In this document: positions 4 to 25,423 of the stretch, piece after piece
How positions within the stretch are numbered: the first letter of the stretch is position 1
Layout of the letters: the number at the start of each line of letters is the position of its first letter
Source of the DNA: an uncultured Solobacterium sp.
Lineage (GTDB): Bacteria; Bacillota_I; Bacilli_A; Erysipelotrichales; Erysipelotrichaceae
Assembly: GCA_905194705.1 (NCBI GenBank)
Contig: CAJJTI010000008.1
Location: forward strand, 1 to 25,474
Direction: 5' to 3'
DNA: 25,474 nt
Notes under the pieces: generated by a model
The model's database searches: none
Told to the model about the DNA's origin: nothing
Seen by the model: the letters and a program-made list of their open reading frames with translations, nothing else
Program-made: the position numbers and the translations under genes

Positions 4-1422
4 TTAATTGCCGAAGCGACAGAATGCGATTTCAAAGTTGCACTTGAAACAAAGAAACCAAAAAGTTGGTTAAAAAGTGTTAGTGCATTTTCTAATGGCA
101 TTGGTGGAACTTTATTTTTTGGTATTTCAGATGATAGAGAACCAATTGGATTATCAGATGTGCAAAGTGATGCTGAAACAATTAGTCGTTTAATTAAAGA
201 ACGTATAACACCGCTACCTCAATTCAATTTAAAACCCTTTGTAGAAGATAATAAAAATCTATTGGCTATAGAAGTTTCTTCTGGTCGTTCTACACCTTAT
301 TATTACAAAGCAGATGGTGTTATGGAAGCTTATGTTCGTGTTGGAAATGAAAGCGTAATTGCTCCAGATTACATTGTCAATGAATTAATTCTAAAAGGAA
401 CTAATCAATCATTTGACACTTTATTAACAGATGCTTTAAAGAGGGATTACAGTTTCACGCTCCTAGAAGCAACTTACTTAGAAAGAACTGGTCTTCATTT
501 TGAACCATCAGATTATATCTCTTTTGGTTTAGCTAATAAAAATGGCTTTTTAACAAATGCTGGAAAACTCATGGCCGATCAACATATAGTGTACAATTCC
601 CGCATATTTTGCACTAGATGGAACGGTTTAGAAAAAGGTTCTATTTTTGATGATGCACTCGATGATAAAGAATATGAAGGAAATTTAATCTATCTATTAA
701 AGAGCGCTTCTGACTTTATTAAAAACAATTCCAAAGTCAGATTTGCTAAAGAAGCACAATACAGAGTAGATAAACCTGATTACGCTGAACGAGCTATAAC
801 AGAAGCTATTGTCAATGCGCTGATTCACCGTGATTATATAGTGCTTGGCAGTGAAATTCATATTGATATGTTTGATGATCGTTTAGAAATTGTTTCTCCA
901 GGCGGTATGTTTGGAGGTGGGACAATTCAAGAATACGATGTTTATAATATACGTTCTATGCGAAGAAATCCCGTAATTGCTGATTTATTTCATCGTATGA
1001 AGTATATGGAAAGACGAGGAAGTGGTTTAAAAAAGATTATTAGCGAAACAGAAATGCTTCCAGGATATAAAGCTGAATTTAAGCCTAAATTTTCATCAAC
1101 TGCAATGAATTTTAAAGTTACTTTCAAAAATTTAAACTATGCCCCAAATTTGAACGACTTAGTTAGTGACCAAGTTAGTGACCAAGTTAGTGACCAAGTT
1201 AGTAACCAAGTTAGCCCAAAGGATATTACACAATCAATTCTAGAATTCTGTGTAATAGAAAAAAGCAAGCAAGAAATATGCTCATTCGTGGGATATAAAA
1301 ATCTTACTTATTTTACAAGAAAGTATTTAAAGCCATTAATATTAAGCGGACAGCTTAAGATGACTATCCCAGATAAGCCAAATAGTAGAAACCAAAAATA
1401 CATTACTACTAGCAATAAATGA
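4..1422 (+). CDS. Schlafen AlbA_2 / GHKL-ATPase / winged-helix transcriptional regulator-like protein (5' end unresolved)
   Basis: The frame is open from base 4, just after a TAA at 1-3. A GTG at 160 is the first conventional start, but the codons before it already encode a typical AlbA_2 (Schlafen-type) core, with KPKSWLKSVSAF, an SNGIGGTLFFGI strand and SDDREPIGLSD. GTG 160 is therefore probably too late. The middle, around bases 790-1060, carries the HATPase_c_4 signature: EAIVNALIHRDY, then RLEIVSPGGMFGG and RRGSGLKKI. A VSDQ repeat linker (1162-1209) leads to a C-terminal winged helix ending in a KPNSRNQKY motif. Proteins with this layout are usually annotated as ATP-binding or RecG-like putative transcriptional regulators; the ligand and target are unknown. 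The real N-terminus either uses a rare start such as ATT at 7, lies outside the window behind a premature stop, or is lost. The gene is monocistronic and followed by a strong terminator. Confidence 0.75.
   Translation, partial: LIAEATECDFKVALETKKPKSWLKSVSAFSNGIGGTLFFGISDDREPIGLSDVQSDAETISRLIKERITPLPQFNLKPFVEDNKNLLAIEVSSGRSTPYYYKADGVMEAYVRVGNESVIAPDYIVNELILKGTNQSFDTLLTDALKRDYSFTLLEATYLERTGLHFEPSDYISFGLANKNGFLTNAGKLMADQHIVYNSRIFCTRWNGLEKGSIFDDALDDKEYEGNLIYLLKSASDFIKNNSKVRFAKEAQYRVDKPDYAERAITEAIVNALIHRDYIVLGSEIHIDMFDDRLEIVSPGGMFGGGTIQEYDVYNIRSMRRNPVIADLFHRMKYMERRGSGLKKIISETEMLPGYKAEFKPKFSSTAMNFKVTFKNLNYAPNLNDLVSDQVSDQVSDQVSNQVSPKDITQSILEFCVIEKSKQEICSFVGYKNLTYFTRKYLKPLILSGQLKMTIPDKPNSRNQKYITTSNK
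1162..1209 (+). repeat. 12-bp tandem repeat coding a VSDQ linker
   Basis: Four head-to-tail copies of gttagtgaccaa, the last with one change (gttagtaaccaa), followed by a partial fifth. They are in frame and encode VSDQ three times then VSNQ. They lie between the ATPase-like domain and the C-terminal winged helix. A copy-number change would lengthen or shorten the linker by four residues without shifting the frame. DQV-type repeats at this place are common in this protein family. Confidence 0.9.
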
Positions 1423-7849: not shown

Positions 7850-8587
7850 TTATCGTAATTCTTCAATATGATATATATAATCTAATGAACTTAGCGCCTC
7901 AATTATCTCTTTATGTGTCTTATATTTTTGAAGTGTTTCACTGAATATCGTAAAAGTAATTGTATAAACACTAAGTCCAGAACTTATATAAGCCTGGTTA
8001 GCTTCTATATCATCTATACGTAATCCAAGTTGTCTACTGACTGTTACAAAATCACGTAAATAATTACTATTCTTTAGTTCCAAATGAATCTCAAAGTGAT
8101 TGGAACGGTTATTTAAATATATTTCAATTGAAGAAAACCATGTCAAAATACAAAAGAATAATATATAGACAATAAGAGTAAATGTATATTGTCCTGCACC
8201 AATAATAAATCCCAAAAATGTGCAGAACCAAAGAGCAGCTGAAGTAGTTAATCCTTTAATTTGACTACGTGAACTAAAGACTATGGAATTACCTGAAATT
8301 AAGGCTGTCGCAATAATTGTACTGCATGATAATAATGGTAAAGTAAGATGATATTCTTCTATAAAATAAAGATCCAGTATCATACAAATACATGAAGAAA
8401 AAGATATTAAGATAAATGTTCTAAGTCCTGCCGAATGACGTTTACTCGCTCTTTCCCAACCGATAATTGCAGTTAAAATAACAACAACAATTAATCTAAA
8501 TATAATAGAGTATATATTTAGTTCTATTGCCCAGTTTCCTAAAATATGAGCAATTGGATCAGAAAACTTATTTACATTTAATATCAT
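7850..8587 (-). CDS. MgtC/SapB family membrane protein
   Basis: A 245-residue protein with about four or five N-terminal membrane segments (to roughly residue 150) and a soluble C-terminal domain of about 85 residues. The family signature IIGWERASKRHSAGLRTF is present just after the first helix. In MgtC proteins the C-terminal domain has an ACT-like fold and the protein is tied to Mg2+ stress, ATPase control and virulence; non-pathogens carry relatives of unknown role. The start codon overlaps the stop of the upstream antiporter gene by 4 bp (ATGA), which argues for coupled translation and a shared function in ion or pH balance. The specific role is inference. Confidence 0.85.
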   Translation of the reverse strand: MILNVNKFSDPIAHILGNWAIELNIYSIIFRLIVVVILTAIIGWERASKRHSAGLRTFILISFSSCICMILDLYFIEEYHLTLPLLSCSTIIATALISGNSIVFSSRSQIKGLTTSAALWFCTFLGFIIGAGQYTFTLIVYILFFCILTWFSSIEIYLNNRSNHFEIHLELKNSNYLRDFVTVSRQLGLRIDDIEANQAYISSGLSVYTITFTIFSETLQKYKTHKEIIEALSSLDYIYHIEELR

Positions 8588-10047
8588 AGACGAGATATAC
8601 CTCTCTTTCGATCGAAGTTAGTTGTAGGTAAAGATAATGTTGCATAATGTTCTTCAGCAGCTTCAGAAAATGCTTTTTCATCTTCATAAAATGGATCATC
8701 ATGTTTTGGTAATTTACTTTGTATTGCCTGAATTCTTTCAATTAACAGTTCTACATCTGTTTTTGGTGTACCTGTAGTTTCTTTCGTTTCAACTTCAGGT
8801 ACCAGGTCTTCTAATTTATTAGAATAAGATTTAGATAAATATAGTGATAACTTGGCACAGGCTGGACCAATTAATTCATATAGAACACTTGAGGCAAGAA
8901 TAACCGTTTCAAGAATATTACCTGTTTCTCCACCCAATGTTCTTGCGCCCATGGCAGCTAAACCAATTGCTACACCAGCTTGTGGAATTAAAGCTAAACC
9001 CAAATAATTACGTACTAATGGATTTTTATGCACCATTGCACATCCTATATAAGCTCCAAGATACTTGCCTATAATACGAACAATAAAATAAACAATCCCT
9101 ATATGTAACAATGATACAGAGCCTATACTTTCTGAACTGTTCACTAAAGCACTAAGATTAAAATTAACGCCAGAACGTACAAAGAAGAGTAATAGAATTG
9201 GTGGATTAAAATAATTCAATTGTTTAAATAAACGTTCGTCATCAGTTAGATTAATATAAATCATACTCATTGACATACAACCTAATAATGGAGAAACATT
9301 GAATATTGCACAAATTCCACAGAATGCAAAAAGCAAAGCAATTGAAACAATTAAACGATTATCAGTTGAACGTTCATGCAGAAATATTTTTAATAGCACA
9401 CCAAATAATGCACCTAAGATAAATACAAATAGATTTAAAAGTATCGGTTGAATAATATTACCAACTTGAAAACTACCGGTTAATGAAGCTAAAGCAACTG
9501 ATATTGCTATACTATATGCAATTAAACCAACCACATCATCTAAAGCTACAACCTGTAATAATGTTTCTACAAAATCTCCCTTTGCGTGTGTCTGACGAAT
9601 TGTCATTACGGTAGAAGCAGGTGCTGTTGCCGAAGCTAAAGCAGCTAAAACAACTGAGAAATTTAATTCTAATCCAAGCATAAAATAGACAGCAATAAAA
9701 ACAAGTATCGAAGCTAGACACGCTTCCATAACCGTAATAACCAATACTTTTGGTCCACTTTTCTTTAGTGTTGAAAACTTAATGAATTCACCTGTACTAA
9801 AGGCAATAAAAGCTAATGCTATATCACCAATAAAGCTCATCCCATCCACAATATTTTTTGGAATTAAATTCAAACAATATGGGCCAATCAAAATACCTGC
9901 CAGAATATAGGCAGTAACGTTAGGTAATCGTAATCGTTTGGTTATTCTTGTCATTAAAAAACCAGAAATAAGCATTAATGAAATTGAAACGATTATTATA
10001 GATACATTAGATGTTATATTAAACATCTCGTAAAGTGGGGTAACCAT
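8584..10047 (-). CDS. Cation:proton antiporter (CPA/Kef-type) with long cytoplasmic tail
   Basis: A 487-residue membrane antiporter of the Na+/H+ exchanger superfamily. The N-terminus shows the typical RLRLPNVTAYILAGILIGP helix, later ALASATAPASTVM (discontinuous helix) and VALDDVVGL, whose two Asp residues form the ion-binding DD motif. Helices run to about residue 425, then a charged tail of about 60 residues without a recognisable TrkA-N domain. I chose ATG 10047 because AAAGGAGG and GGGGAGG lie directly upstream; the frame stays open further upstream but lacks another good RBS and runs through the preceding terminator. It is first in a probable antiporter-mgtC-HAD operon. The transported ion (Na+ or K+) cannot be read from the sequence. 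Confidence 0.9.
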   Translation of the reverse strand: MVTPLYEMFNITSNVSIIIVSISLMLISGFLMTRITKRLRLPNVTAYILAGILIGPYCLNLIPKNIVDGMSFIGDIALAFIAFSTGEFIKFSTLKKSGPKVLVITVMEACLASILVFIAVYFMLGLELNFSVVLAALASATAPASTVMTIRQTHAKGDFVETLLQVVALDDVVGLIAYSIAISVALASLTGSFQVGNIIQPILLNLFVFILGALFGVLLKIFLHERSTDNRLIVSIALLFAFCGICAIFNVSPLLGCMSMSMIYINLTDDERLFKQLNYFNPPILLLFFVRSGVNFNLSALVNSSESIGSVSLLHIGIVYFIVRIIGKYLGAYIGCAMVHKNPLVRNYLGLALIPQAGVAIGLAAMGARTLGGETGNILETVILASSVLYELIGPACAKLSLYLSKSYSNKLEDLVPEVETKETTGTPKTDVELLIERIQAIQSKLPKHDDPFYEDEKAFSEAAEEHYATLSLPTTNFDRKRGISRL

Positions 10048-10075
10048 GAAACCTCCCCCCTCCTTTCTATTACTT

Positions 10076-10084
10076 ATTTTATCA
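10076..10084 (-). promoter_or_regulatory. Extended -10 promoter of the antiporter-mgtC operon
   Basis: TGA followed by TAAAAT on the minus strand, about 30 bp upstream of ATG 10047 and downstream of the terminator at 10120-10149. The expected leader is short, about 20 nt, leaving no room for a riboswitch. Confidence 0.45.
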
Positions 10085-10119
10085 CAAATCAATTTACAAA
10101 GATGATATTTAAATATATT

Positions 10120-10149
10120 AAAAGCCCCAAAATCATAAGACTTTGAGGC
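10120..10149 (-). terminator. Terminator of the radical SAM gene
   Basis: An 11-bp minus-strand stem (GCCUCAAAGUC with GAUUUUGGGGC, two G-U pairs) closes a UUAU loop and is followed by UUUUAAUAU. It lies 30 bp past the stop of the radical SAM gene and insulates it from the antiporter operon. Confidence 0.8.
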
Positions 10150-10179
10150 AAAGGATATAGTGAGCAATTTTTATTTTAT

Positions 10180-22759: not shown

Positions 22760-23494
22760 CTATATCCCTTCTGTATTTCTTATATGATTGAATATAATCT
22801 GTATTTCTTCATGCTTTAATATAACTTCAGATAATTCAGGTTTATCCATATCTTTGCCTTTATACAACTTACCTTTTTCAATGATTTCCGTAATTTGTAT
22901 CGTTCTACCATCCAAGGTATATGCATATTGATTAACATGTACATTAATATCAAATTTATCTTTATCAGTTTCTTTTAACCTTTTATAAAAAGCGTACTCA
23001 TAATAGTTTGACTGGTAATAACCAAATTCTACTTTTCCATTTTGATTTATAGCATAAAAGCAGTTCTTATCTGGTGATACTCTATATCTGTATTTAAATG
23101 TATATGATTCTATCGCTAACAATGGATTCATACCCTCATAATAGTCCTGAAACTCTTCAAAATCATGATCTCTTAAGGCAATATACTCTTCCCATGCTAA
23201 AAGCTCATCCATATTAATTTCTGGTAATTTATCCATAATTTTGAAATCATACCGTATATGATCCACAAAGACTACTAAGCATTTACACTCGTCACAATAC
23301 CAACAGTCTAAATCTTCCCCTCGAATACCATCTACGCAATCATATATTTGTGATAAGTATTCATCATTTCCTAATTGAAAATATGGATATTTCTTTACAA
23401 TATCTTTAAAGAAATTAACACGAAAAGCATAAACAACTGGTTTTCCATCACCATTCCACATGCTATGACCTGAAGGACATGACGTATGTGCCAT
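22760..23494 (-). CDS. Conserved cysteine-rich protein of unknown function
   Basis: A soluble 244-residue protein I cannot assign. It opens with AHTSCPSGHSMWNGDGKP, and a second cluster CWYCDECKC (Cys64, 67, 70, 72) follows, so one or two metal sites formed with Cys6 and His10 are likely. The rest is rich in Tyr, Asp and Glu, with no membrane segment. Its style suggests a zinc-ribbon protein of gut Firmicutes. It is cotranscribed with the cytidylate kinase-like gene. A TATAAT (23519-23514) about 20 bp upstream of ATG 23494 and a GAGGT ribosome binding site are visible. Confidence 0.75.
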   Translation of the reverse strand: MAHTSCPSGHSMWNGDGKPVVYAFRVNFFKDIVKKYPYFQLGNDEYLSQIYDCVDGIRGEDLDCWYCDECKCLVVFVDHIRYDFKIMDKLPEINMDELLAWEEYIALRDHDFEEFQDYYEGMNPLLAIESYTFKYRYRVSPDKNCFYAINQNGKVEFGYYQSNYYEYAFYKRLKETDKDKFDINVHVNQYAYTLDGRTIQITEIIEKGKLYKGKDMDKPELSEVILKHEEIQIIFNHIRNTEGI

Positions 23495-23614: not shown

Positions 23615-24794
23615 CTATAGACCATATTTCAATAATTTTTTATATGTAGAATCTATTGCAAATGCCCCTAATGGAGTCGTTAACACTATTGCTAAAACTG
23701 CTACAGTAAGAACTGTATCACCACAAGCAAGTCCTAAAGAAAGAGGTATCCCTCCAATTGCCGCTTGAACTGTAGCTTTTGGTGTATAAGCCATCATTGT
23801 AAACAGTTTTTCATTTGGTTTAATACATGTTCCTAGTAAGCTAACAAATACCCCAACCATCCGAAACATCAGGGCAACAAGAATAACAATCAATGCTTTA
23901 ATTCCTACTTTACCTAAATAATTAATATTCACTGTTACTCCAACTAATACAAACAAGAATATTTCTGCCGCAACCCATAACTTACTATATTTAATAGAAA
24001 GTCTTTTCGCTACAATCTCTCTTTTTTTCTGTATGCCGATACCAATAAACATAATGGCAATTAAACCGGAAAAAGTAATAGAGGTTGTTAAAGAATCTTC
24101 AATTACGACAAGCAAGAAAGAAACACTTAAAATAATTAGTACTTTCGAAGTATCTCTAATATGGACTTTCTTAAAAAGATATGCCATTAAATAACCAATA
24201 AGTAATCCAATTAGAATACCCAAAAATATTGACACAGGAATATTAATGAAATTAAGTATTGATGCATTTTCACCTTGTATCATCCCAGTAAATGTTGAAA
24301 ATAGCACTATCACATAAACATCATCGACTGATGCTCCTGCAAGAATTAATTGAGGAATTCCTTCTTTTACACCATATCCTTCATCTATTAACTTAACCAT
24401 TCTTGGCACAACAACAGCAGGAGATACTGCCGCAAGAACTGAACCCATTATCGCCGCTTCTAAAACGCTTATCCCCATGAGTTTTGGAGCAATAAATCAT
24501 TCCAATTAATTCAAAAGTTGCTGGTACAAAACACATTAATATTGCTGGTTTACCTAATTTTTTTAAACCTGATAAATCTAGACCGAAACCTGCTCTAGTT
24601 AAAATAATAATTAAAGCTATTTTTCTTAAATCAGCAGATATTCCTAAAATACTGCTATCTAATAAATTTAAAACATATGGTCCTAATATAATTCCTGTAA
24701 CTAACATACCTATTAAGCTTGGCAGTTTTAATTTACTACATATATACCCCATTGACATACCTACAATTAAAATTAATGAAATACTTAATAACAT
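23615..24794 (-). pseudogene. Cation:proton antiporter, frameshifted
   Basis: A second antiporter of the Na+/H+ exchanger superfamily, split in two frames. The N-terminal piece (24794 to about 24490) has LKLPSLIGMLVTGIILGPYVL and the RAGFGLDL helix, and in the right frame ends at FELIGM. The rest continues one frame over as FIAPKLMGISVLEAAIMGS, then AAVSPAVVVPRMVKL and the ion-binding GASVDDVYVIVLF. Removing one base, or adding two, near 24495 restores one continuous chain of about 390 residues. Unless it is a sequence error, the first frame ends in a cysteine-rich nonsense tail at 24393 and the second piece could only be made from an internal ATG (24478). GGAGG precedes ATG 24794, just after the candidate riboswitch terminator. 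Confidence 0.85.
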
Positions 24795-24811
24795 ATATCC
24801 TCCTAAATAAA

Positions 24812-24863
24812 CAAAGAAAAAGCTGACACTATCTGCGTAAATTTTGCGGAAGTCATCAGCTTT
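24812..24863 (-). terminator. Riboswitch expression-platform terminator
   Basis: AAAGCUGA (24863-24856) pairs perfectly with UCAGCUUU (24826-24819), extended by two G-U pairs, and is followed by UUUUUCUUU. The 5' arm includes GCUGAUGAC, which is also the 3' part of the proposed aptamer, so aptamer folding and terminator folding compete. It lies about 18 bp before the antiporter start codon. Confidence 0.75.
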
Positions 24864-24911
24864 AATATGCGGTTTAAGTAAATATTTTACTTAGGGAGAA
24901 CCTCATTCCCT
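24846..24911 (-). promoter_or_regulatory. Candidate fluoride (crcB-motif) riboswitch aptamer
   Basis: Minus-strand RNA from 24911: P1 AGGGA/UCCCU encloses loop AUGAGGUUC. A 7-bp optional stem follows (AAGUAAA, loop AUA, UUUACUU), then AAACCGC, a weak P3, and GCUGAUGACUUCC. Loop bases GAGGUU (24904-24899) can pair with GACUUC (24854-24849) as the pseudoknot. The order of AUG-loop, UAA/AAAC joiner and GCUGAUGAC matches the fluoride riboswitch as I remember it from Bacillus and Thermotoga examples. Departures are the weak P3 and CCGC where U-A-C is usual. The family is known upstream of fluoride exporters and some Na+/H+ antiporters. Confidence 0.6.
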
Positions 24912-24944
24912 TTTATTCCTTAAAAGGATGTCATATCAATCCAT

Positions 24945-25423
24945 CTATTTCAATAGATATCTTTCTATCATTTTTACTTTTTCTTTTCTTCCCATTAATT
25001 GATAGTATTTACACCATAGTTGTGGAGATTGTAATGGAACTAATTCTCTTCCAAGTTTAATTTTTTCTACTATCTGATTTTCACTCAATGAACAGTCATA
25101 TAGTTTACCTTCATATAGAATGGATAATCCTGCCATCACATCAACATCAATATCATCTATGACAAATTCCATAAATGTCTTTGTACGATAGATAGAATTT
25201 TGATCTTGATTAGATTCTTGAATTTTTCCCATTCCAAGTAAAATATCTTTCACTTTTTTGCATCATCATTAGAAACCATTAAGTCAATATCGTGGAATTC
25301 AGTTGTAATTCCTTTAAAATACAACAGCATTGAAGCACCCAATGCCCATTCAACATTTTCTTTATTAAAGTGATATGCTATCTTTTCTAATAATTCTAAT
25401 TTTTCTTTTACTGTTTTCATCAT
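24945..25423 (-). pseudogene. Nucleotidyltransferase-fold protein, frameshifted at an A6 run
   Basis: From ATG 25423 (or 25420) the frame reads MMKTVKEKLELLEK, then WALGASMLLYFKG and EFHDIDLMVSNDDAKK before TGA. The GAS and DID elements resemble the nucleotide-binding Gly-Ser and metal-binding Asp pair of minimal nucleotidyltransferases. The continuation, KDILLGMGKIQESN through to LWCKYYQLMGRKEK, lies one frame over and begins at a GTG (25253). Adding one A to the six-A run at about 25254-25259 joins the two into about 160 residues. This may be a sequencing or assembly slip in a homopolymer, or a true frameshift. The function is unknown; such proteins include antibiotic-modifying enzymes and toxin-antitoxin members. 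Its start overlaps the stop of an upstream gene. Confidence 0.7.

What the first reader, a model, noticed from the sequence alone, without database searches (positions are those of the whole stretch)
24812..24911. Candidate fluoride riboswitch with overlapping terminator in front of an antiporter gene
The minus-strand leader of the 23615-24794 antiporter shows the fluoride aptamer order: P1 with an AUGAGGUU loop, an optional extra stem, AAAC, and GCUGAUGAC. A six-pair pseudoknot GAGGUU/GACUUC is possible. The aptamer's 3' segment is also the 5' arm of a U-tailed terminator, a sound ON-switch design. The target would be a CPA antiporter and not CrcB or the CLC-F exporter. The sequence departs from consensus at the end (CCGC for CUAC), where a conserved long-range A-U contact is expected, so it may be a variant or a decaying aptamer.
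Basis: partly seen in the sequence, partly recalled or inferred. Interest (0 to 1): 0.72.

Follow-up and report, generated by a model that had tools for sequence, protein, structure and literature searches.

The report
Worn fluoride riboswitch before antiporter gene
This is a genuine but apparently decaying fluoride-sensing RNA switch in front of a broken ion-exchanger gene, and intact copies in related bacteria suggest that this little-studied exchanger may stand in for the known fluoride exporters.

Summary
Window 24840-24919 (minus) matches Rfam RF01734 (fluoride riboswitch), 34.8 bits against a gathering score of 34. In 14 of 23 genomes with a related antiporter the aptamer occurs 37-52 nt before that antiporter or a paralogue.

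The window copy looks worn. It alone has C at position 48 (U in all 112 recognisable relatives), which breaks the A40-U48 linchpin. Terminator and -10 box are weakened; the antiporter and the gene upstream are frame-broken.

Antiporter targets are known for this riboswitch. What the relatives add is quantity. In 397 Lachnospiraceae genomes 59 of 70 riboswitches precede this NHA2-like antiporter; in 83 genomes of a second order, 21 of 24. Antiporter genomes rarely carry CrcB (1 of 85, 18.0 expected) or CLC-F (0 of 85, 4.5 expected), while another CLC type is not excluded (33, 37.5 expected). That suggests that the antiporter replaces the exporters. Kinship is not corrected for, and 209 of 397 genomes have none of the three. 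Whether it moves fluoride or lowers the pH gradient that traps fluoride is untested.

The parts
24925..24953 (-). promoter-like site: -35 TTGAAA (24953-24948), 17-nt spacer, -10 CATCCT (24930-24925); of 13 relatives printed, 11 read TATnnT and 2 TACAAT or TAGAAT about this place
   Evidence: read by eye; the consensus scan found no promoter here
24840..24919 (-). fluoride riboswitch aptamer (RF01734), window copy
   Evidence: cmscan 34.8 bits, gathering 34; alignment A1
24894..24910 (-). P1 hairpin, stem 24910-24907 with 24897-24894, loop holding the 5' pseudoknot strand
   Evidence: 95.3% of cells paired in A1
24899..24904 (-). pseudoknot 5' strand GAGGUU
   Evidence: 97.3% of cells paired in A1
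24876..24892 (-). optional extra stem AAGUAAA/UUUACUU
   Evidence: 4 of 4 counted pairs with changes on both sides in A1; 77.5% of cells paired
24859..24870 (-). second core stem, two G-C pairs plus a mismatched A24868-A24861 (a standard pair in 74 of 80 rows)
24849..24854 (-). pseudoknot 3' strand GACUUC, shared with the terminator 5' arm
24848..24856 (-). linchpin position: A40 (24856) and C48 (24848) in place of U48; broken pair
   Evidence: pair kept in 79 of 80 rows, the exception being the window; U48 in all recognisable relatives
24819..24863 (-). intrinsic terminator overlapping the aptamer 3' half, with a U-rich tract at its end; C-A mismatch at C48
   Evidence: fold -14.3 kcal/mol over the 59 nt 24812-24870, z -2.62; -13.8 for the hairpin alone, median of 81 relatives -22.0
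24799..24804 (-). ribosome binding site AGGAGG
   Evidence: read
24393..24794 (-). antiporter, N-terminal piece (133 aa frame)
   Evidence: PF00999 39.6 bits, cut-off 26.2
23615..24478 (-). antiporter, C-terminal piece (287 aa frame) in another frame: gene is frame-broken
   Evidence: PF00999 105 bits; of the 104 listed proteins at 94-99% identity 103 are 379-406 aa and one is 307 aa
24945..25423 (-). upstream gene, also frame-broken (57-aa piece 25423-25253 and 102-aa frame 25253-24945)
   Evidence: 58 of 63 listed relatives are 153-172 aa; translation with stops

Best explanation
It is a copy, by descent, of an ON-type fluoride riboswitch that in relatives controls an NHA/SLC9B2-like cation/proton antiporter. 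[quoted passage not shown] without fluoride the terminator forms. Layout and conservation are shown here; the switching step is inferred from the published class mechanism. In the window, C48 removes the linchpin and also mismatches the terminator, the terminator is weakened, the -10 box is off-pattern, and antiporter and upstream gene are frame-broken. Most likely this strain's copy is recently decayed: poorly responsive to fluoride, and with no full-length product if it is transcribed.
For: RF01734 hit above gathering. Same element before related antiporters. Structure supported across 80 sequences. U48 in 105 of 105 relatives over the cut-off and in 7 of 7 recognisable aptamers below it; C only in the window. 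Published U48A mutant loses the fluoride-locked state (PMC8752731, passages). Terminator -13.8 against a median of -22.0 kcal/mol. Antiporter in two frames while 103 of 104 listed close relatives are 379 aa or more. Upstream gene 102 aa where 58 of 63 listed relatives have 153-172 aa. Other linked antiporters are broken too: L094, L125, L131, L147, a truncated one at L119 and one behind a group II intron maturase at L151.
Against: The aptamer still passes the Rfam gathering score, and pseudoknot, P1, extra stem and RBS are intact, so decay is recent or partial. U48C was not in any passage that I read; an A-C contact might keep some function. Seven of 81 relatives had terminators as weak or weaker in the script (five of them cut short by it). 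Leader DNA of the 94-99% relatives could not be fetched, so whether C48 is confined to this strain is unknown. Assembly error is not excluded.
Confidence: 0.72

Rival explanations
1. A working sequence variant: C48 keeps enough of the contact with A40 (for example as an A-C pair), and the switch still responds to fluoride, perhaps with altered threshold.
For: The other core parts are intact, apart from one mismatch in the second stem, and the score passes gathering. Position 49 does vary naturally (A or G).
Against: C48 in none of the recognisable relatives. The terminator partner base was not changed with it, so both alternative folds are weakened. The controlled gene is broken. U48A abolished the locked state in Bacillus cereus (PMC8752731, passages).
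Confidence: 0.13
2. The odd base and the frame breaks are sequencing or assembly errors in the window's contig; the true locus is an ordinary working riboswitch and antiporter.
For: No whole genome is held for the window. The upstream break lies at a run of A. Nearly all listed close antiporter relatives are intact.
Against: Two other database clusters, 98% identical, have the same 102-aa upstream frame (P0123 and P0124). The 287-aa frame represents a cluster of 13 member sequences on 3 contigs (P0001), though the members' own lengths were not shown. One search lists long frames over most of the rest of the window. Substitutions (C48, -10 box) are not the usual homopolymer error.
Confidence: 0.15
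3. In the relatives the antiporter is not a mere accessory but replaces the fluoride exporters, either by exporting fluoride or by admitting protons so that the pH gradient that traps fluoride as a weak acid collapses and HF leaks out.
For: 59 of 70 riboswitches in Lachnospiraceae and 21 of 24 in the order of G013 precede it. Overlap with CrcB 1 of 85 (expected 18.0, Fisher 3.0e-09) and with CLC-F 0 of 85 (expected 4.5, p 5.5e-03). Negative control: another CLC type 33 of 85 (expected 37.5, p 0.32). Tolerance of a lower internal pH is reported for fluoride-acclimated yeast (PMC11139923, passages).
Against: Counts are not corrected for kinship. 209 of 397 genomes have none of the three genes, so lacking an exporter is common here. 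D158, D159, E95 and R312 are invariant, as fits a cation/proton antiporter. In Clostridioides difficile an NhaP-type antiporter sits beside a CLC gene under one riboswitch (PMC11477304, passages). 29 of 85 antiporter genomes have no riboswitch over the cut-off.
Confidence: 0.3
4. Chance resemblance, not a riboswitch.
For: Score only 0.8 bits above gathering.
Against: Position, structure and gene context are conserved across many species.
Confidence: 0.01

Closest known systems
Fluoride riboswitch (Rfam RF01734, crcB motif), type example Bacillus cereus crcB
   Same: P1, pseudoknot, second stem, AAACC, GCUGAUGAC, overlapping terminator, ON layout
   Different: Window has C48 in place of the linchpin U; lineage has G49 as a rule and a covarying extra stem; target is an antiporter
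Clostridioides difficile CD0656-0657 fluoride riboswitch operon
   Same: Fluoride riboswitch controlling a gene annotated as NhaP-type antiporter (PMC11477304, passages)
   Different: There the antiporter follows a CLC-type gene; here it follows the riboswitch directly, and CLC-F was found in none of the 85 antiporter genomes. Whether the two antiporters are of one subfamily was not tested
Mammalian NHA2 (SLC9B2), PDB 7b4l and 7p1i
   Same: Closest solved relatives of the intact 393-aa antiporter P0010 by sequence, E 2e-40 and 4.4e-39; aspartate pair aligned
   Different: Eukaryotic; no fluoride link seen in the listing
CrcB/Fluc and CLC-F exporters
   Same: Other genes under the same riboswitch (CrcB 1 and CLC-F 7 of 70 in Lachnospiraceae; CLC-F 3 of 24 in the order of G013)
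   Different: Unrelated proteins; found with the antiporter in 1 of 85 antiporter genomes

Membership tests
Fluoride riboswitch RF01734 (by descent) | covariance-model score at or above gathering | tested here: met
   34.8 vs 34
Fluoride riboswitch RF01734 (by descent) | P1 and H-type pseudoknot | tested here: met
   six pseudoknot pairs possible in the window
Fluoride riboswitch (functioning) | linchpin pair A40-U48 | tested here: not met
   A-C in the window; kept in the 79 other rows of A1
Fluoride riboswitch (functioning) | expression platform overlapping the aptamer | tested here: met
   terminator 24863-24819 shares the 3' pseudoknot strand, though weak
Fluoride riboswitch (functioning) | 5' leader of an intact gene of fluoride defence | tested here: not met
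   antiporter frame-broken; the class of target is right (PMC11139923, passages)
Fluoride riboswitch (functioning) | binds fluoride with Mg and changes transcription | not testable with these tools
   needs in-line probing and a termination assay
Na_H_Exchanger PF00999 | profile score over cut-off | tested here: met
   both pieces, 39.6 and 105 bits vs 26.2; intact relative P0010 147.3
NHA/SLC9B-type antiporter | closest to NHA2, aspartate pair and the Glu/Arg positions kept | tested here: met
   tested in relatives, not in the broken window gene as a whole; D158, D159, E95, R312 invariant in 67 proteins; the meaning of Glu/Arg is recalled
named NCBIfam antiporter equivalog | score over curated cut-off | tested here: not met
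   best 72 vs 355 for P0010

The most novel reading that the evidence does not exclude
In Lachnospiraceae and a second order of Bacillota an NHA/SLC9B2-type antiporter, switched on by fluoride, is a third principal fluoride defence that replaces CrcB and CLC-F, either as a fluoride exporter of a new fold class or by deliberately lowering the pH gradient so that trapped fluoride leaves as HF. The window holds a decaying copy of this module.
Probability: 0.27. Interest if true: 0.8.

Novelty: new member of a known kind. Interest (0 to 1): 0.48.

Why it matters
Antiporters under fluoride riboswitches are put down to pH upkeep in the review that I read (PMC11139923, passages). The near-absence of both known exporters from genomes that carry this antiporter, without exclusion of a CLC type that lacks the published fluoride motifs, makes a sharper question testable: is there a defence against fluoride without CrcB, CLC-F or FEX? 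The window copy adds a natural case in which the linchpin base, known to me only from a designed mutant, has changed together with loss of the controlled gene. A bacterial relative of mammalian NHA2 with a fluoride-linked role would also bear on that transporter family.

Tried and rejected
Chance match: rejected. Mobile plasmid or phage origin of the locus: no DNA match in plasmids or phages. Close relatives in viral contigs: none. Pattern scripts missed some aptamers; 11 and 2 were read by eye. Because the Rfam cut-off itself could hide C48 aptamers, the 18 matches below it were fetched and read: 7 are recognisable aptamers, all with U48; 11 look like chance matches in other sequence. Searches used stricter filters that lose weak matches. 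Terminator energies: of 7 relatives as weak as the window or weaker, 5 were cut short by the script at an early T run, so the comparison is rough. A terminator-like site on the plus strand (24893-24911) is the mirror of P1 and was set aside. CrcB was counted at E up to 0.001 (84 genomes, one of them below the curated cut-off). One search repeated at a looser threshold and added nothing. Structure prediction was not run.

Full report
What is there. On the minus strand, 24919-24840, Rfam's fluoride model scores 34.8 bits against a gathering score of 34, over its whole length; it is the only family that reaches its gathering score in the window. Next come an intrinsic terminator that reuses the 3' pseudoknot strand (24863-24819), AGGAGG at 24804-24799 and a start codon at 24794.

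What it is in relatives. A scan of one genome per species found 23 loci with a related antiporter at 56-83% identity. A search of those 23 genomes found 15 fluoride riboswitches in 14 of them; all 15 lie 37-52 nt before this antiporter or a paralogue. In the other 9 genomes no riboswitch was found, although two of their antiporters are 80-81% identical to the window's (L003, L005), so the link is common, not universal.

Structure. Of the 82 relatives, 79 were aligned with the window (three with hits over 90 nt were left out). Pseudoknot cells pair in 97.3%, P1 in 95.3%, the second stem in 97.5% and the extra stem in 77.5%; all four counted pairs of the extra stem show changes on both sides. 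Sliding the partners by 1-3 columns lowers paired cells from 92.6% to at most 66.7%. For three of the five measures none of 500 shuffles reached the observed value; for pairs with a change on both sides 6 of 500 did, and for further pair types 31 of 500. The linchpin A40-U48 (numbering of the published aptamer) is kept in 79 of 80 rows; the exception is the window.

The window copy is worn. Position 48 is U in 105 of 105 distinct riboswitches over the cut-off (92 by script, 13 by eye) and C in the window. Since the cut-off itself could hide such cases, the 18 matches below it were read as well: 7 are recognisable aptamers, all with U48. In a single-molecule study the U48A mutant lost the fluoride-locked state (PMC8752731, passages); U48C was not in what I read. 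The base opposite in the terminator was not changed, so the terminator loses a pair too: -13.8 kcal/mol against a median of -22.0 for 81 relatives (7 relatives are as weak or weaker, 5 of them cut short by the script). The -10 hexamer reads CATCCT; of 13 relatives printed, 11 have TATnnT and two TACAAT or TAGAAT (read by eye). A consensus scan finds no promoter in the window region. The antiporter lies in two overlapping frames, each matching part of PF00999. Among the 104 listed proteins at 94-99% identity 103 are 379-406 aa and one is 307 aa. The gene upstream is a 102-aa frame where 58 of 63 listed relatives have 153-172 aa. The same 102-aa frame recurs in two other clusters (P0123, P0124), which speaks against a private assembly error but does not exclude it. 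Of 71 riboswitch-linked antiporters, 66 are open for 340 aa or more; of the 5 shorter ones L092 runs off its contig, and L094, L125, L131 and L147 are broken. With the truncated L119 and the interrupted L151, loss of the gene behind a good riboswitch is a recurrent event.

Known or new. A review states that after the exporters, Na+/H+ antiporters are the next most common genes under fluoride riboswitches (PMC11139923, passages; section 11; its source, Baker 2012, is not held). In C. difficile one fluoride riboswitch precedes a CLC gene and an NhaP-type antiporter (PMC11477304, passages). So riboswitch and target class are known. No listing, nor the passages that I read, showed me a paper that treats this antiporter as a replacement for the exporters; most subscription papers are outside that library.

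What the relatives add. The same 397 genomes of the family of G001 (Blautia sp., hence Lachnospiraceae) were searched four times. Antiporter at E up to 1e-60: 85 genomes. Riboswitch over the cut-off: 70 places in 68 genomes. CrcB: 84. CLC-F, at least 47% identical to a riboswitch-linked CLC-F: 21. Of the 70 riboswitches, 59 have antiporter sequence downstream on the same strand, with the start 18-328 nt away; the other 11 are 7 before CLC-F, 1 before CrcB, 1 before a MutS-domain gene, one before a truncated antiporter and one with a group II intron maturase in between. Antiporter and CrcB share 1 genome (18.0 expected, p 3.0e-09), antiporter and CLC-F none (4.5 expected, p 5.5e-03); of the 56 genomes with both antiporter and riboswitch none has CrcB or CLC-F (14.7 expected, p 8.7e-09). 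CrcB and CLC-F share 1 (4.4 expected, p 0.041). As a control, a CLC type with other motifs is shared by 33 (37.5 expected, p 0.32). In 83 genomes of the order of G013 (an Erysipelotrichaceae bacterium) 21 of 24 riboswitches over the cut-off precede an antiporter at 40-77% identity and 3 precede CLC-F; the 4 below the cut-off also lie in loci with the antiporter. Against a strong reading: no correction for kinship, completeness of genomes not told, and 209 of 397 genomes have none of the three.

The protein. The intact relative P0010 (393 aa) is closest among solved structures to NHA2/SLC9B2 (E 2e-40), ahead of a Na+/H+ antiporter 1 (4czb, 9e-12; recalled as an archaeal NhaP1). No NCBIfam antiporter model reaches its cut-off. 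In 66 linked antiporters plus P0010, D158, D159, E95, R312 and PKATV are invariant, so a cation/proton site seems kept. That favours gradient control over direct fluoride transport. The argument: fluoride enters as HF and is trapped by the pH gradient, so an exchanger that admits protons lowers the trap. This is inference from weak-acid chemistry, not a result.

Verdict. A real riboswitch by descent, most likely recently decayed in this strain, of a known kind; the pattern in its relatives is the more interesting part and is directly testable.

Noticed in passing
L161 4025-4573 (Klebsiella plasmid) and other records: A short cation:proton antiporter relative (58% identity over query residues 99-284) lies between IS26 and rmtB1; 339 plasmid records match the antiporter, 304 of them Escherichia or Klebsiella. 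Described only.
   Followed up: partly
L151 1152-2543 (-): A group II intron maturase ORF (RVT_1 and GIIM) lies between a fluoride riboswitch and its antiporter about 2.3 kb away.
   Followed up: partly
L130 366-440 and 501-573 (+): Two fluoride aptamers in tandem before one antiporter.
   Followed up: no
L189 and L193, matches as printed: Two matches below the cut-off keep the 3' half of the aptamer (AAAC..GCUGAUGACUUCUGC) with a degenerate P1 and no antiporter in the stretch fetched: possible further riboswitch remnants.
   Followed up: partly
window 8584-10167 (-) and 7850-8587 (-): A second Na_H_Exchanger protein (527 aa, CPA2-like) next to an MgtC-family protein.
   Followed up: no
window 160-1422 (+): Protein with HATPase_c_4 and Fic-like C-terminal domains and a weak AlbA_2 match.
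   Followed up: no
window 22760-23494 (-): 244-aa protein directly after the antiporter without any Pfam or NCBIfam match.
   Followed up: no
L072-L080, L082-L085 (CLC proteins): A CLC subfamily with GREGA and GEIVP in place of GREGT/V and GEVTP, at 33-39% identity to CLC-F, taken to occur in 175 of 397 Lachnospiraceae; its ion is unknown.
   Followed up: partly
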